This document shows positions 2,954 through 7,449 of a DNA stretch of 64,000 nucleotides, piece by piece (within the stretch, counting starts at the first letter, position 1; every line of letters begins with the position of its first letter). This stretch comes from Acidobacteriota bacterium. GTDB taxonomy: Bacteria; Acidobacteriota; Terriglobia; Bryobacterales; Bryobacteraceae. The position numbers were made by a program, and so were the translations under genes. Location of the stretch: NCBI GenBank assembly GCA_017307505.1, contig JAFKEE010000033.1:1-64000 (forward strand). The letters run 5' to 3'. The notes below the pieces were generated by a model. The model ran no database searches, had not been told where the DNA came from, and saw nothing but the letters and a program-made list of their open reading frames with translations.

Positions 2954-3469
2954 CTATATGCGAGTCGGGATGCCTGCGTACCTTGCATTGGGCACACCCA
3001 CATACTGAAGAGTCAGCACCGAAGTAAATGACTCAAGCGAACGCAGTATGTCATATAGCCCCCAATCGGACATATAGAAGGTAATCCTCTCTTTGCGCTC
3101 AAACGCCAAGTCCAAGCAACTACTAGCGACTAGAGCATCTCCGCTTTTCAGCCTTCTCCTGTTTATAACGCCAGCAAATCTAATAAGCTCGCGGGCTCTC
3201 GTTATATCACGTGTAGTCGTATTTCGAACAAGTAGTCTTCCATTTGCTAAGTCTTTTATAATCGCTCGATTCATGGCGTCATACCGGCGCGCAGGAAGCC
3301 CTCCCTGTCGACATCTGTTTGCAAAGGCACTAGCCATCTCCAATACGGACCATTCCGATATGTAGCATTCATTTCGCCTGCTTGAAACAAGACGTTTTAT
3401 ACTAGACGTTTCAGTACTCTCGACGTATCGATGCTGAAGAGCAGAAGAGTCCAAGAAATGTATCCCCAT
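2954..3469 (-). CDS. PIN-domain (VapC-like) ribonuclease
   Basis: 171-residue single-domain PIN protein. The start at 3469 (MGIHFLDSSAL) is chosen because the PIN fold begins there and GAGAAAG lies upstream; a longer frame to 3589 would run into the preceding gene. Candidate metal-binding acids sit in the expected order: D7 in FLDSSAL, E44 in EWSVLEM, D111 in SGDAL and D135 in MSDWG. PIN domains of this VapC type are Mg-dependent RNases, usually toxins. No antitoxin gene is adjacent; instead the gene lies 11 bp after a response regulator and ends a five-gene operon with a kinase and a DNA methyltransferase. I infer that it is the effector of that system. The substrate (tRNA, mRNA or DNA) cannot be read from sequence. 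Confidence 0.82.
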   Translation of the reverse strand: MGIHFLDSSALQHRYVESTETSSIKRLVSSRRNECYISEWSVLEMASAFANRCRQGGLPARRYDAMNRAIIKDLANGRLLVRNTTTRDITRARELIRFAGVINRRRLKSGDALVASSCLDLAFERKERITFYMSDWGLYDILRSLESFTSVLTLQYVGVPNARYAGIPTRI

Positions 3470-3480
3470 AGCAACTTTCT

Positions 3481-3984
3481 CTAGATGTCCTTCTGCTTCT
3501 TGAGGGCCTTCAGCTTTTTTGACGCTCTTGCCGCCTCTTGCAGCTTGATGCCACTTGCGCGCGCCATATCCTTGGCGATTGCCTGCCAATCTGCAACCGG
3601 CTCCCTCGTCAAAAGGGAAGACATGGTATTCAACAAAACACCACTCGTAAGGGGTTTATGCAAATAGGCATCCGCCTGCACAGATTGCTTTAGCTCTCCG
3701 GCAATGTCTTTCTCAGTAGCATTAGGCTCCAATTTTCCGGAAATAATAATAGATCTCACCAATGGCTGAATCTTTCTAATTCTCGTTAACAGCTCAAGCC
3801 CATTGACTCCTGGCATGAGAAAATCAAGGATTACAATATCAAACGAGTGCTGCTCACAACATTCAATTGCATCCTTCGCATTTGACGCTGTTTTTACAGC
3901 ATAGCCAGCGAGTCTTATCGCCCTAGAAGTCGCCCCTAGAGCATCCGGCTCATCATCCACCACCAAAACTCTGTTATTAGCCAT
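3481..3984 (-). CDS. Single-domain response regulator with a short basic C-terminal tail
   Basis: 167 residues. A canonical receiver fills residues 5-125: acidic pair D10/D11 (VLVVDDEPD), phospho-acceptor D54 (VILDFLMPG), S82 and K110 (YLHKP). After it there is only a ~40-residue helical, Lys-rich tail (ARASKKLKALKKQ) and no DNA-binding or enzymatic output domain. The start at 3984 has GAGGTG just upstream and overlaps the end of the kinase gene by 8 nt, which points to translational coupling. The kinase encoded upstream is its obvious phosphodonor and the PIN nuclease 11 bp downstream its obvious target. I infer that phosphorylation controls the nuclease by protein contact, with the tail as a possible docking or antitoxin-like segment. 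Confidence 0.87.
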   Translation of the reverse strand: MANNRVLVVDDEPDALGATSRAIRLAGYAVKTASNAKDAIECCEQHSFDIVILDFLMPGVNGLELLTRIRKIQPLVRSIIISGKLEPNATEKDIAGELKQSVQADAYLHKPLTSGVLLNTMSSLLTREPVADWQAIAKDMARASGIKLQEAARASKKLKALKKQKDI

Positions 3985-5884
3985 CCGACACCTCACCATT
4001 TAAAAATAGTACAGTGAACGTTGTACCTACTCCGTCTTTTGTTGTAAACGCTATTTCACCTCCTCTTGCACGCAACATTGTGTGGCAGAAGTACAGACCT
4101 ACGCCCCATCCTCCGGTTTTCTGTGTATTGAATTGTTTAAAGATCTTTGCGCGAATTCCCTCAGGTATTCCATATGCGTTGTCAGTTACAATAAGCTGAT
4201 GCTTTCCATTCACCTTTGACAGAACGACTTTGATCTCTCTATTCCGTCCGTCGTCGGTATTTACATGCGCATCCATGGAATTTCTGAGCAGGTTAAGAAG
4301 GACAATTCGAAATAACGTCTCATCAATATAAGCATCGTGCTTATCACTACTTTTTACTTGAATCGTAATCCCCTCGGATGCACACCTAGCCTCAAGATTT
4401 CCGCACACTTCGCTTACAACCTTCGCAAGATCAACATCTGAGTCAACACCTAAGTCGCCCTTGGCCAATGAGGCAATCGTTTGAATGCTCTTCTCAATCC
4501 TCTCAATGCCAGTGGTAACGTTTGCGTGTGCCTCATTGATATCAGGATCGTCGATCTCCAATTGCACAAGGCGAGTCTTAATATTGTCTACCTCAAGTTG
4601 GACCGTATGCAGCGGCTGCCTGAGTTCGTGTGCAAGCCCATATGACATCAGGTTTAGAGCTTGCAATCTGGCACTTTCAAGCTCCGCCACCTTTCGGCTC
4701 TGATTCTCTTCCCAGCGCGGCTCCGCAATTTCCGCGCGAATAATCTCTTCGAGCACCTCAAGTTGCTCTCTCAGCAGCTTGACCAAGGCACGAGCGGCCG
4801 TCGTGTCGATCAGAGCCTCTCTGCTAGTTGTATCGATCAGATCAGGATTTGCGGTCCGAGAGATCCCGACAAATCCAAACAAACGAGACGGAACAATATG
4901 CGCATGCCCAGCGCGTTTCGCTCGCTTCTCTGCTACGCCGAGCCAGTCAGCTGTGTTCGAACCAAATGGCTCAATTCGAAATCCATCACGGAAGAGCCGG
5001 ACACCTGGCTCAAGACCTTGAGTTTCATTTTTGGATGGCCGCGCTAAGAAATACAGGAGTCGCCCACGAACTCCCTTCAGTTCAGATAGCACGGCTGCGC
5101 CTGCTGCCCATTGCCCACCCTTCGCCGTTGGATGCTCGGAACCTTTGATCTTGCGCCTGACTTTCCCATCTTTCTCAACGAGAAAATGAAGCTCGATGCT
5201 CGCGCCGCTTAGCGGAGATTGTTGAATCGCGCCAGACAATGCAGGAGATCCAACAACAGAGAGGGTAACAATAAACTGTGAAAGAGCTTCGAACGGATTA
5301 AACAACTCCGAAAGTGCCGCCCGAAGCGCCAGGATTTTGGATCGCTCCCAAGCATCCCTCAACCGAGTGATGCGCATGAGAGTACCCTGCTCGTCTTTCT
5401 TAAACTCCACGGCTCTCCGGTACGTGAAAGGCACTGTGACATCGCCAAACTCTTTCGCGCGATTATCGAAATCACTCCAGTCGATTGCGACGCATAGAGT
5501 CCGGTCGTCTTCTTTAATCTTTGTCAAAATTTCTAGTTCGACACCTAAGCGATCCGCTGCAAATCTACCGATTCCTTTCTCCCCAGTTGGAATTCTCTCT
5601 GCAGCAGCAACTTCTTGAGGTCGACTACTGAATCCCGCAAACATGAATTGCCCGCGGAATTGAACAATTGACATACCAGAGCCATCGTCCTGAATCGAAA
5701 TTACCCCTGGCTGCTTTATCGTAGGCTGCTGTATTGTGATATCAACATGTTTTGCGCCTGAATCGTAAGCATTCTTAACCAACTCGACGATAGCCATCTC
5801 GTCACTACGGAAAAGCTCCCTCCCAATCAACCGCTGCAGGTAGGCAGAGGCCTTAAATCTGAACTCATCATCGCCCTTAGGCAT
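3977..5884 (-). CDS. Dual-GHKL sensor histidine kinase (Hsp90/MORC-like ATPase + histidine kinase)
   Basis: 635 residues, no membrane segment, so cytoplasmic. The N-terminal Hsp90/MutL-type ATPase has an N box (ELVKNAYDS, 34-42), DDGSGM (66-71) and GEKGIGRFAADRLG (101-114). A middle transducer-like region includes RDGFRIEPFG (299-308). A coiled coil (~365-410) leads to a histidine-kinase dimerisation helix with HELRQPL (phospho-acceptor H419). A second ATPase follows: N box LNLLRNSMDAH (~530-540), DNAYGI (568-573, with Ala where G1 normally has Gly) and G2 GGWGVGL (591-597). The start overlaps the methyltransferase stop by 8 nt, and the end overlaps the response regulator start by 8 nt. The lack of a classical input domain suggests that the N-terminal ATPase itself senses an intracellular cue, such as DNA or protein. 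Confidence 0.88.
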   Translation of the reverse strand: MPKGDDEFRFKASAYLQRLIGRELFRSDEMAIVELVKNAYDSGAKHVDITIQQPTIKQPGVISIQDDGSGMSIVQFRGQFMFAGFSSRPQEVAAAERIPTGEKGIGRFAADRLGVELEILTKIKEDDRTLCVAIDWSDFDNRAKEFGDVTVPFTYRRAVEFKKDEQGTLMRITRLRDAWERSKILALRAALSELFNPFEALSQFIVTLSVVGSPALSGAIQQSPLSGASIELHFLVEKDGKVRRKIKGSEHPTAKGGQWAAGAAVLSELKGVRGRLLYFLARPSKNETQGLEPGVRLFRDGFRIEPFGSNTADWLGVAEKRAKRAGHAHIVPSRLFGFVGISRTANPDLIDTTSREALIDTTAARALVKLLREQLEVLEEIIRAEIAEPRWEENQSRKVAELESARLQALNLMSYGLAHELRQPLHTVQLEVDNIKTRLVQLEIDDPDINEAHANVTTGIERIEKSIQTIASLAKGDLGVDSDVDLAKVVSEVCGNLEARCASEGITIQVKSSDKHDAYIDETLFRIVLLNLLRNSMDAHVNTDDGRNREIKVVLSKVNGKHQLIVTDNAYGIPEGIRAKIFKQFNTQKTGGWGVGLYFCHTMLRARGGEIAFTTKDGVGTTFTVLFLNGEVSDG

Positions 5885-7202
5885 TGGATTTCCTTAACAC
5901 TATGACTGATTCTCGAAGGAAATGATTCCCCGACAGGCGCCGCTTAAGACTCCGGGCTACCAATGTACTCTCGACAGTGAAGCCGAGAATCGGAGCCATA
6001 ACACTAATTATTAAGTCAGTTGGAACAAGATATGGAAATGCAGCTCCTCCGTGGAGTGAATTACCCACAACGAGCACCTCGTAACCACCTGGCTTCAAAC
6101 ACTGATAGTGCTGCGATAGCGCATTGTGGAGGTCAGAAAAATAGCCAACAAGAAGTCGTCTTCGCCATTTTTGTGACGATGCGTCAGCACGCTCGAGCAT
6201 TGGATCAATGAGCTTGCGCAGTTCTGAGTGGCCGGGCCCCAGATGAAAGTGGGCATCATTCTCCAAGGGCGCGGCTGTAGGATGGCTACGCAGAGTTTCC
6301 CGCCTTAGCCCCAAGAACTTCTCCGCCGTGTCAACAAATCCTAGAAACCACAATTCGAGCTTGTATACCTCAGTATAATCAATTGTGTTTGGATACGGAG
6401 GCGAGGTAACAATCAAGTCAATAGAACTCGGCCGAATTCCGTACTTCAGTGGACGCCTCCCATCTCCTAGAATTACTTTGGAAGGAGTTGCTTTTGATAT
6501 ACTTGCTCTTCGAGCCTGCACGTCCTTTGCGATCATTGTCCATTTTTCCCGAAGAGTTGCAAATACGGGCTGCTTTGCCTTCTCCACAATTCGCAATGCC
6601 CGCCCGTCCTTTCTGACTTTGCTTAAAGCCTCTATACTTGCGGCTAACCCGAGCAGAAGCGCATTGGCCTCAGCGTCGTCGGCCAGTGACCGAATAGCAT
6701 CGCGAACCGCTAATAGCTGCAGGGAAACATCGATATTTATGCATCGAGCATCAGAGATACTGGAGAGGCACGGCAATTGAGGGCTTATCGATAAAGATTT
6801 TGACAGGGCACATTCACCGAGCGACAACAACCGCTCCGGGTTAATTTTGTTCCAATTCGCTTTCACGCTAGCGACAAATGCGATGAATGGATTGATTTCA
6901 AACCCTATGCCTTTAAATCGTTGACTAGGAATCTCAGAACACGACAGCAGGCTAGTCCCAGAACCGCAAAACGGGTCAAGGAAATTTAGACTTTTGGCAA
7001 CTGGCAAGTCCAATGAAGGAATTATAGTCTTGAGCAAATCTGACGAGAAGCCCTCCTTGAATCTAAACCATCTGTGAACCGGACGAGATTCATTTCGGGA
7101 AGACACTACAAGATCCGAGTATGCGGGAGCATACCAGATTGGCATGTTTTTCTCAATATCCCTAAACGCAGCCAACTCGGGCAATTGATCATCGCGAATC
7201 AT
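5877..7202 (-). CDS. Site-specific DNA methyltransferase (amino-methyltransferase, SPPY type)
   Basis: 441 residues. The AdoMet-binding motif I is LDPFCGSGTS (75-84) and the catalytic motif IV is TSPPYPNTIDY (266-276). Motif I precedes motif IV, and SPPY is the form often seen in N4-cytosine enzymes, although N6-adenine is possible. The ~180 residues between the two motifs probably hold target recognition. The start codon overlaps the stop of the HTH gene as ATGA, and the end overlaps the kinase gene. No restriction endonuclease lies beside it, so this is not an ordinary restriction-modification pair. Within the operon it could mark self DNA so that the kinase-nuclease arm fires only on unmodified DNA (inference). 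Codon use is AT-richer than in the flanking chromosome. Confidence 0.87.
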   Translation of the reverse strand: MIRDDQLPELAAFRDIEKNMPIWYAPAYSDLVVSSRNESRPVHRWFRFKEGFSSDLLKTIIPSLDLPVAKSLNFLDPFCGSGTSLLSCSEIPSQRFKGIGFEINPFIAFVASVKANWNKINPERLLSLGECALSKSLSISPQLPCLSSISDARCINIDVSLQLLAVRDAIRSLADDAEANALLLGLAASIEALSKVRKDGRALRIVEKAKQPVFATLREKWTMIAKDVQARRASISKATPSKVILGDGRRPLKYGIRPSSIDLIVTSPPYPNTIDYTEVYKLELWFLGFVDTAEKFLGLRRETLRSHPTAAPLENDAHFHLGPGHSELRKLIDPMLERADASSQKWRRRLLVGYFSDLHNALSQHYQCLKPGGYEVLVVGNSLHGGAAFPYLVPTDLIISVMAPILGFTVESTLVARSLKRRLSGNHFLRESVIVLRKSNA

Positions 7203-7405
7203 GACTTCCTCGGAGGAGTTGTAGTATCGGCATAGATCCTAATTCGCGAAATATCCTGTTCAGTGAAGATGCGCCACCCATTACGGTTGCGAGCGACTTC
7301 TCCTACTTTCTCAGCCAGGAGCCAGCGCTTCAACGTGATTGGGGATACACCAATTTTCGTTGCGGCCGCTTTCAGCCCGTATGTTCTTGCACTTGTATTA
7401 CTCAT
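7199..7405 (-). CDS. Small MerR/excisionase-like HTH protein
   Basis: 68 residues from the ATG at 7405 (MSNTSARTYGLKAAATKIG). The helix-turn-helix reads GLKAAATKIGVSPITLKRWL, followed by a wing-like NGWRIFTEQD segment, the pattern of MerR-type and excisionase-type DNA-binding domains. It has no effector domain. It heads the operon and its stop codon overlaps the methyltransferase start (ATGA). The most likely role is an operon autoregulator, possibly acting at the palindrome at 7421-7432. A role as a recombination directionality factor from the element that delivered the island cannot be excluded. The longer frame to 7459 would run through the promoter-like sequences and is not preferred. Confidence 0.78.
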   Translation of the reverse strand: MSNTSARTYGLKAAATKIGVSPITLKRWLLAEKVGEVARNRNGWRIFTEQDISRIRIYADTTTPPRKS

Positions 7406-7420
7406 GCGTCTTGAATACCC

Positions 7421-7449
7421 CGTATCAATACGTATCGCCACGCATTGTA
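7421..7449 (-). promoter_or_regulatory. Candidate promoter -10 and operator of the island operon
   Basis: On the minus strand, TACAAT (7444-7449) resembles a -10 box 39 nt before the HTH start codon. Between them lies the inverted repeat CGTAT-TG-ATACG (7421-7432), overlapped by ATACGTAT (7428-7435), so that GATACG is also directly repeated at a 10-bp period. A good -35 box is not evident. The position just downstream of the -10 suits a repressor site for the adjacent HTH protein; this is inference from layout. Confidence 0.4.

What the first reader, a model, noticed from the sequence alone, without database searches (positions are those of the whole stretch)
2954..7405. Five-gene HTH / DNA methyltransferase / dual-GHKL kinase / response regulator / PIN nuclease operon
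Seen: five minus-strand genes joined by ATGA, 8-nt, 8-nt overlaps and an 11-bp gap, in AT-richer DNA between a recQ fusion and a truncated transposase. Known: PIN proteins are usually toxins, methyltransferases often mark self DNA, and Hsp90-like ATPases and two-component-like relays (for example Detocs) occur in phage defence. Inference: a self/non-self check by methylation or by the kinase N-terminal ATPase feeds a His-Asp relay that frees or activates an RNase. I do not recognise this five-gene combination as a named system.
Basis: partly seen in the sequence, partly recalled or inferred. Interest (0 to 1): 0.85.

Follow-up and report, generated by a model that had tools for sequence, protein, structure and literature searches.

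The report
Methylase-linked kinase relay controlling an RNase
A soil bacterium carries an acquired five-gene set in which a DNA-methylating enzyme, an unusual two-ATPase sensor kinase and its partner switch protein sit next to a likely RNA-cutting toxin; it looks like a new version of a partly described kind of bacterial defence relay whose killing part can be exchanged.

Summary
In detail: five tightly coupled minus-strand genes (MerR-like HTH, N6/N4 DNA methyltransferase, 635-aa kinase, single-domain response regulator, PIN protein) lie in low-GC DNA beside a recQ-type gene. Kinase, regulator and PIN keep their expected active-site residues except one G1-box glycine. The kinase joins a paraMORC/MORC-type GHKL ATPase to a HisKA-like histidine kinase. 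In related loci the gene after the kinase is almost always a receiver protein (phospho-acceptor Asp in 132 of 133, window included), and methyltransferases cluster nearby (97 of 148). The paraMORC kinase/receiver pair beside methylases was published in 2021 (PMC8011034), so this is a new variant, not a new kind. What differs is the output. Of 153 loci, 31 have receiver-fused HEPN-like RNases, 16 HNH nucleases, 14 caspase-like proteins and 91 are unassigned; a PIN occurs in the window alone. The exact five-gene set was not found elsewhere. Best explanation: a horizontally acquired, methylation-linked phosphorelay that licenses a PIN RNase on invasion (abortive infection). No phage phenotype was tested. 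Boldest reading: the receiver has replaced the antitoxin of a VapC-type toxin, giving a phospho-switched toxin.

The parts
7199..7405 (-). 68-aa MerR-like helix-turn-helix protein, probable operon regulator
   Evidence: Pfam MerR_1 1.3e-5; weak PADLOC mad1 match 2.5e-4
5877..7202 (-). 441-aa N6-adenine/N4-cytosine DNA methyltransferase; motif I DPFCGSG at residue 76, motif IV TSPPY at residue 266
   Evidence: Pfam N6_N4_Mtase 1.2e-7; PADLOC MTase_II PDLC03224 1.7e-50; motif positions
3977..5884 (-). 635-aa kinase: N-terminal paraMORC/MORC-type GHKL ATPase (E34, N38, D66, G68, G70, G101/G104/G106), HisKA-like helix with H419, C-terminal HATPase_c (N531, N535, D568, G572, G592/594/596; A570 where at least 90% of relatives have G)
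3481..3984 (-). 167-aa single-domain response regulator (D10, D11, D54, S82, K110) with a basic, lysine-rich tail of about 40 residues
   Evidence: Pfam Response_reg 3.7e-22; residues
2954..3469 (-). 171-aa PIN-domain protein, catalytic acids D7, E44, D111, D135; proposed RNase output
   Evidence: Pfam PIN 8.6e-4; hhalign to six VapC-like proteins probability 98.6, E 1.2e-15, over residues 1-121; four acids invariant in 7 of 7
7421..7432 (.). 12-nt inverted repeat CGTATtgATACG ending 15 nt before the HTH start; possible operator, unproved
   Evidence: no chance estimate made

Best explanation
A horizontally acquired, methylation-linked phosphorelay defence module. SHOWN by sequence: five coupled genes; paraMORC-type ATPase fused to a histidine-kinase transmitter; receiver with a full active site; methyltransferase with its motifs; PIN with an intact VapC-type tetrad; the same kinase-receiver pairing beside methylases and varied effectors in many other loci. 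INFERRED: (1) the methyltransferase marks host DNA; (2) the paraMORC ATPase, like MutL or MORC a nucleotide-driven clamp on DNA or DNA-bound protein, monitors whether DNA carries the mark, or whether methylation has been disturbed; (3) engagement triggers phosphorylation of H419 and transfer to D54 of the regulator; (4) the phosphorylated regulator activates or releases the PIN, which cuts cellular RNA and stops the infection by dormancy or death; (5) the MerR-like protein tunes operon expression.
For: Operon structure and foreign base composition. H419 invariant in 65 of 65 kinases, window included (the nearby E34-D41 motif is also invariant, but most loci were found with that motif as the search pattern). 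Gene after the kinase, 133 dereplicated proteins: phospho-acceptor Asp in 132, acidic residue at D15 in 132, Ser/Thr at 87 in 127; gap of 10 nt or less in 134 of 144 loci that have such a gene, near-identical loci left out. Methyltransferase motif within 2.5 kb in 97 of 148 loci; 104 of 657 near genes against 3 of 373 genes more than 5 kb away in the same 148 loci. Effector class and methyltransferase together: HEPN-like 30 of 31, HNH 15 of 16, caspase-like 12 of 14, PIN 1 of 1. One HNH tested matches Septu PtuB at 3.7e-18. Relatives of the kinase occur at 55 loci on viral contigs and in 56 plasmid records, 19 of them covering at least 80% of the query. Two same-genus genomes carry different DNA at the same recQ-side site. 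Precedents read in passages: VcSduA, a GHKL ATPase with a nuclease, blocks phage and needs its ATPase residue (PMC12137116); PIN-dependent defence without a classical antitoxin (PMC13092281); paraMORC-HEPN fusions in R-M neighbourhoods (PMC3710099).
Against: The PIN version is a singleton: a PIN profile found no second PIN among all called genes of 158 loci, and there was no close PIN relative in 299 same-class genomes (13 others matched, 28-35% identity) or in plasmids. No phenotype was measured. No other defence gene was noted in the rest of the window, which was viewed only as an ORF list. The C-terminal ATPase has A570 in place of the usual G1-box glycine, so kinase activity is not certain. 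The kinase sits on a long, poorly placed branch, and its histidine-kinase half is more like ordinary kinases, so inference from relatives about what it senses is weak. 51 of 148 loci show no methyltransferase within 2.5 kb by the motif test, and 91 of 153 have no assigned effector. The PIN structure prediction failed (pLDDT 36.5); against PDB sequences the PIN alone found no PIN, only a weak flagellar L-ring match (E 0.09; NCBIfam FlgH 1.1e-3).
Confidence: 0.5

Rival explanations
1. Phospho-switched toxin-antitoxin or addiction module: the receiver occupies the antitoxin's place and its basic tail blocks the PIN; the main effect is stabilising the element, not defence.
For: Among VapC-like relatives of this PIN, a short gene lies directly upstream in 4 of 10 loci where the PIN ORF was picked (L182, L183, L185, L188; a fifth, L194, is possible) and in both viral loci (L206, L207); called antitoxin-like by size and place only. 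Here that place is taken by the regulator 11 nt upstream. The PIN has a VapC-type tetrad.
Against: In relatives the same kinase-receiver pair serves HEPN-like, HNH and caspase-like outputs, which an addiction role does not predict. The tail was not tested for inhibition.
Confidence: 0.2
2. Restriction-modification in a strict sense: the PIN, or a complex with it, cuts unmethylated foreign DNA, gated by the paraMORC ATPase and relay.
For: The kinase N-terminus resembles the GHKL part of type II restriction enzymes of the BbrUII/HgiDII family (NCBIfam 3.3e-19, 68.9 bits against a cut-off of 550; PADLOC 4.6e-8). Relatives carry HNH or Vsr nucleases and methylases.
Against: VapC-type PIN domains are RNases (established knowledge of the family); no DNA-recognition subunit was seen; many relatives have HEPN-like or caspase-like outputs.
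Confidence: 0.13
3. A regulatory two-component system answering cell state (nucleotides, DNA damage) by RNA cleavage, with no role against invaders.
For: The histidine-kinase half and the receiver are close to ordinary two-component proteins; HTH regulator present.
Against: Foreign composition, strain-variable site, carriage of relatives on plasmids and viral contigs, methylase and nuclease neighbours.
Confidence: 0.1
4. Chance neighbours: the PIN gene is an unrelated orphan VapC dropped behind a kinase-receiver-methylase unit, or the operon is decaying.
For: Singleton PIN; A570 in the G1 box.
Against: All five ORFs intact; 11-nt spacing; PIN third-position GC is close to that of its neighbours; the PIN stands where relatives with short receivers have an effector gene.
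Confidence: 0.07

Closest known systems
HEF_HK / Response_reg_2 two-component-like pair with paraMORC ATPase (Bellieny-Rabelo 2021, PMC8011034; abstract and parts 1-4 of 7 of the text read)
   Same: Kinase with N-terminal HATPase_c_3 and C-terminal HATPase_c, next to a receiver gene, in methylase and nuclease neighbourhoods
   Different: Window kinase matches HisKA and not HEF_HK; receiver is canonical Response_reg, not Response_reg_2; methylase is N6/N4, while C5 methylases are the conspicuous ones there; output is PIN
paraMORC GHKL ATPases in R-M operons (Iyer 2008, PMC2292703; passages read)
   Same: GHKL plus S5-type ATPase module beside methylases and nucleases
   Different: The words receiver and response regulator do not occur in its main text
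VcSduA, a Shedu protein with a GHKL N-terminus, paraMORC3-like (PMC12137116; passages read)
   Same: GHKL ATPase domain thought to control a nuclease; anti-phage activity shown
   Different: Nuclease fused directly; no phosphorelay, receiver or methylase in the protein
VapC PIN toxins (VapBC)
   Same: PIN fold and catalytic tetrad
   Different: Upstream gene is a response regulator, not a VapB-type antitoxin
PADLOC receiver-bearing defence models (SduA, PDC-M60B/C, PD-T4-6)
   Same: The regulator matches their receiver parts weakly (SduA 1.4e-7, PDC-M60C 1.2e-4)
   Different: Match is to the receiver domain only; no other part of those systems was hit in the window operon
Detocs (recalled; no text read)
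   Same: Kinase and receiver relay controlling an effector in phage defence (recalled)
   Different: As recalled it has no paraMORC ATPase or methylase and uses another effector; not compared by sequence
MADS (gene order recalled; PADLOC models mad1, mad2)
   Same: Small HTH followed by a methylase; weak mad1 similarity
   Different: Only two weak partial matches and none to another mad model

Membership tests
paraMORC-type kinase family | HATPase_c_3 at the N-terminus and HATPase_c at the C-terminus | tested here: met
   for the window; both domains in 65 of 65 kinases scanned, window included
HEF_HK / Response_reg_2 pair | HEF_HK (PF19191) domain | tested here: not met
   not among matches at E up to 1; 3 of 65 kinases match it, the window matches HisKA
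HEF_HK / Response_reg_2 pair | Response_reg_2 (PF19192) in the neighbour | tested here: not met
   Response_reg 3.7e-22 instead; 1 of 133 downstream proteins matches PF19192
HEF_HK / Response_reg_2 pair | Receiver gene adjacent to the kinase, with a methylase in the neighbourhood | tested here: met
VapBC toxin-antitoxin | PIN domain with acidic tetrad | tested here: met
VapBC toxin-antitoxin | VapB-type antitoxin gene directly upstream | tested here: not met
   upstream gene is a response regulator
MADS | Further mad genes next to mad1/mad2-like genes (gene set recalled) | tested here: not met
   five operon proteins only: HTH to mad1 2.5e-4 and methylase partly to mad2 2.3e-6; other window genes were not scanned against PADLOC
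Type II restriction-modification | Restriction endonuclease sharing the methylase's site | not testable with these tools
   no recognisable DNA endonuclease in the operon; specificity needs methylome data
Detocs | Homology to the Detocs proteins | not tested
   no hit carried that name; whether PADLOC 2.0.0 holds Detocs models was not established

The most novel reading that the evidence does not exclude
The paraMORC kinase plus receiver is a general immune chassis, linked to DNA methylation, whose output is exchanged: PtuB-like HNH DNase, HEPN-like RNase fused to the receiver, caspase-like protease, or, as here, a PIN RNase. In this window the receiver has taken the antitoxin's place beside a VapC-type toxin, making a toxin whose release is set by phosphorylation.
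Probability: 0.3. Interest if true: 0.82.

Novelty: new variant of a known kind. Interest (0 to 1): 0.62.

Why it matters
If right, bacteria use a His-Asp phosphorelay driven by a MORC/MutL-type ATPase, linked to DNA methylation, to fire exchangeable killing parts, including RNases and caspase-like proteases. It would give the paraMORC kinase/receiver pair published in 2021 an output and a testable role, and give a way to ask what MORC-type ATPases sense. A VapC-type toxin under a receiver would be an unusual way to control a toxin.

Tried and rejected
Rejected: MADS, because only two weak matches were found; plain HEF_HK/Response_reg_2 membership, because both defining domains are absent. The methylase's plasmid relatives stand in other contexts where annotated: two methylases with HNH or AAA genes, or no visible R-M partner; one search returned no annotation.

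Led nowhere: PIN structure from single sequence (pLDDT 36.5, not used). Foldseek of the receiver-HEPN model returned receiver-driven matches and no HEPN structure among the 50 shown of 1239; HEPN therefore rests on the Rx4H motif in 32 of 32, an all-helical C-terminal prediction and weak HEPN Pfam matches, below cut-off, in 3 of 10 pieces. The caspase-like class was grouped by eye (14 loci) and its profiles were built from those same 14 loci, so the count is the hand-made group; the label rests on conserved His-Gly and Cys and weak profile matches (caspase-3 E 0.29; legumain E 0.028, below two designed TIM barrels). No Rfam match; promoter and terminator scans at chance level; no repeat pair bracketing the operon. 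No PDB sequence match for the methylase. [quoted passage not shown]

Rows dropped before counts: A2 held 133 downstream proteins out of 135 dereplicated (L035 and L115, very long ORFs, left out; for L114 the next gene replaced a 71-aa ORF). A3 held 66 of 78 dereplicated second-downstream proteins, 12 judged outside the operon or overlapping. Five loci had kinase ORFs under 600 aa (158 to 153). Searches left out five further near-identical loci (148). L079/L205 and L123/L204 are the same contigs; L204 and L205 were not counted. The loci were selected by the kinase N-terminus, so counts describe that family, not all genomes. The methyltransferase test is a crude motif search. In one search the ordinary kinases compared had been chosen for similarity to the window kinase, which favours them. 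The 4 effector changes on the tree come without a shuffled control and on a quick tree.
Full report
THE OBSERVATION. The five genes are present as described, on the minus strand at 7199-7405, 5877-7202, 3977-5884, 3481-3984 and 2954-3469, with overlaps of 4, 8 and 8 nt and a gap of 11 nt. The region is clearly AT-richer than its surroundings. In two relatives of the same genus (92% and 90% DNA identity in the recQ-type gene) the match stops at that gene's stop codon: nothing else in the first 16 kb of the window matches the roughly 12 kb fetched beyond it. Those genomes carry other genes there, several of lower GC; by eye some look like HipA and RES toxins, which was not scanned. The operon therefore sits in a strain-variable site and was probably acquired.

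THE PROTEINS. The kinase has an N-terminal HATPase_c_3 ATPase of the MORC/paraMORC kind, a HisKA-like segment and a C-terminal HATPase_c. Its N-terminus also matches BbrUII/HgiDII-type restriction enzymes (3.3e-19, far below that model's cut-off). In an alignment of 65 kinases H419 is invariant; the E34-D41 motif is too, but it was part of the search pattern that found most loci. One departure is A570 in place of the G1-box glycine. The histidine-kinase half is closer to ordinary kinases of its own genome (best 73 bits) than to the same half of any of the other 152 paraMORC kinases (best 41 bits), while the N-terminal half scores up to 161 bits against them. It may be a paraMORC module joined to an orthodox transmitter, though the ordinary kinases compared were chosen for similarity. 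The regulator has a full receiver active site, D10, D11, D54, S82 and K110. The PIN is supported by profile comparison over residues 1-121 (98.6, 1.2e-15) and by four aligned acids; the VapC-like profile itself, built without the window, matches a solved PIN protein, 2fe1, at 1.2e-4 (listed there as a conserved hypothetical protein, its PIN nature recalled).

RELATIVES. Searches brought in 157 further loci: 8 from plasmids, 14 from Acidobacteriota genomes, 80 from GTDB genomes and 55 from viral contigs. With the window, 153 of 158 have a kinase ORF of at least 600 aa. The next gene downstream is a receiver protein almost without exception: the phospho-acceptor Asp is present in 132 of 133, although Pfam recognises only 46 as Response_reg and 1 as Response_reg_2. 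It starts within 10 nt of the kinase's end in 134 of 144. Methyltransferases are concentrated near the kinase (104 of 657 near genes, 3 of 373 far genes); of 70 dereplicated genes directly upstream, 34 match C5 methylase, 7 Eco57I, 7 N6_Mtase and 3 N6_N4_Mtase, with some overlap possible. Deinococcus gobiensis plasmid P2 shows the same order of parts as the window: HTH, methylase, kinase, receiver-length protein and HNH nuclease, though the HTH is of another kind.

OUTPUTS. Three effector classes recur among 153 loci: a HEPN-like domain fused to the receiver in 31, an HNH nuclease in 16, and a caspase-like protein, grouped by eye, in 14; 91 are unassigned. In 58 of the 62 loci with a recognised class, the window included, a methyltransferase motif lies within 2.5 kb. 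Only the window has a PIN: a PIN profile matched no other called gene in 158 loci at E up to 0.01. The HNH of L050 matches Septu PtuB at 3.7e-18. The HEPN-like and caspase-like labels are sequence-level inferences with the limits given under tried and rejected. On the kinase tree the three classes need 4 changes, and HEPN-like and caspase-like outputs lie side by side in one supported clade (L100 with L075 and L118), so outputs do change within the family. A PIN in the output position fits this, but it is a single case.

WHAT IT PROBABLY DOES. The parts suggest that methylation marks host DNA, that the paraMORC ATPase reports an unmarked or disturbed state, and that phosphate passes from H419 to D54 to let the PIN act on RNA. 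Only the parts and their residues are shown; the sequence of events is inferred. Precedents are a GHKL-nuclease protein with anti-phage activity needing its ATPase residue (PMC12137116), PIN-dependent anti-phage systems (PMC13092281) and paraMORC-HEPN fusions in R-M neighbourhoods (PMC3710099), all read in passages.

NOVELTY. The kinase/receiver pair and its link with R-M genes are in print (PMC8011034, abstract and parts 1-4 of 7 read). That paper says that no canonical DHp domain is found in HATPase_c_3 proteins; here HisKA matches 4 of 65 kinases at E up to 0.01, best 1.9e-7, the window's own match being below Pfam's cut-off. Ten literature searches listed no paper whose title or shown abstract describes these effector classes beside the pair, or a PIN version. 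Several lists were cut (for instance 12 of 289, 15 of 50), the library holds only part of the literature, and PMC7159879 (passages) and PMC12839542 (passages) treat other systems. One predicted system in PMC13092281 (a figure legend names HATPase and REC; figure not seen) could be related. I rate it a new variant of a known kind.

Noticed in passing
L208:4446-6839 (own genome, contig C17): A second paraMORC-type kinase (797 aa, profile E 6.7e-117) with a 657-aa protein that begins like a receiver (by eye) directly downstream and a 481-aa possible methyltransferase (by eye) upstream.
   Followed up: partly
L104:11328-12248 and 30 other loci: Receiver proteins with a C-terminal HEPN-like domain (Rx4H in 32 of 32 profile matches) directly after paraMORC kinases.
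   Followed up: partly
L086:11732-12331, L082:12256-12918 and 12 other loci: Small proteins with conserved His-Gly and Cys after the receiver, caspase-like by weak profile matches.
   Followed up: partly
L147:7059-8411 and similar loci (alignment A5, 21 proteins): About 450-aa receiver proteins with a conserved C-terminal domain of unknown kind.
   Followed up: partly
L205:2-7085: A GHKL protein and three large genes stand just upstream of the paraMORC kinase; by eye the set resembles the Mza system.
   Followed up: no
L214 and L215, next to the recQ-type gene: In two same-genus genomes the site beside the recQ-type gene holds different cargo, by eye HipA-like and RES-like toxins, suggesting an integration hotspot.
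   Followed up: partly
window:10295-11220: A repeated gene family: this stretch has many copies, mostly at about 74-85% DNA identity, in its own genome and in two same-genus genomes.
   Followed up: no
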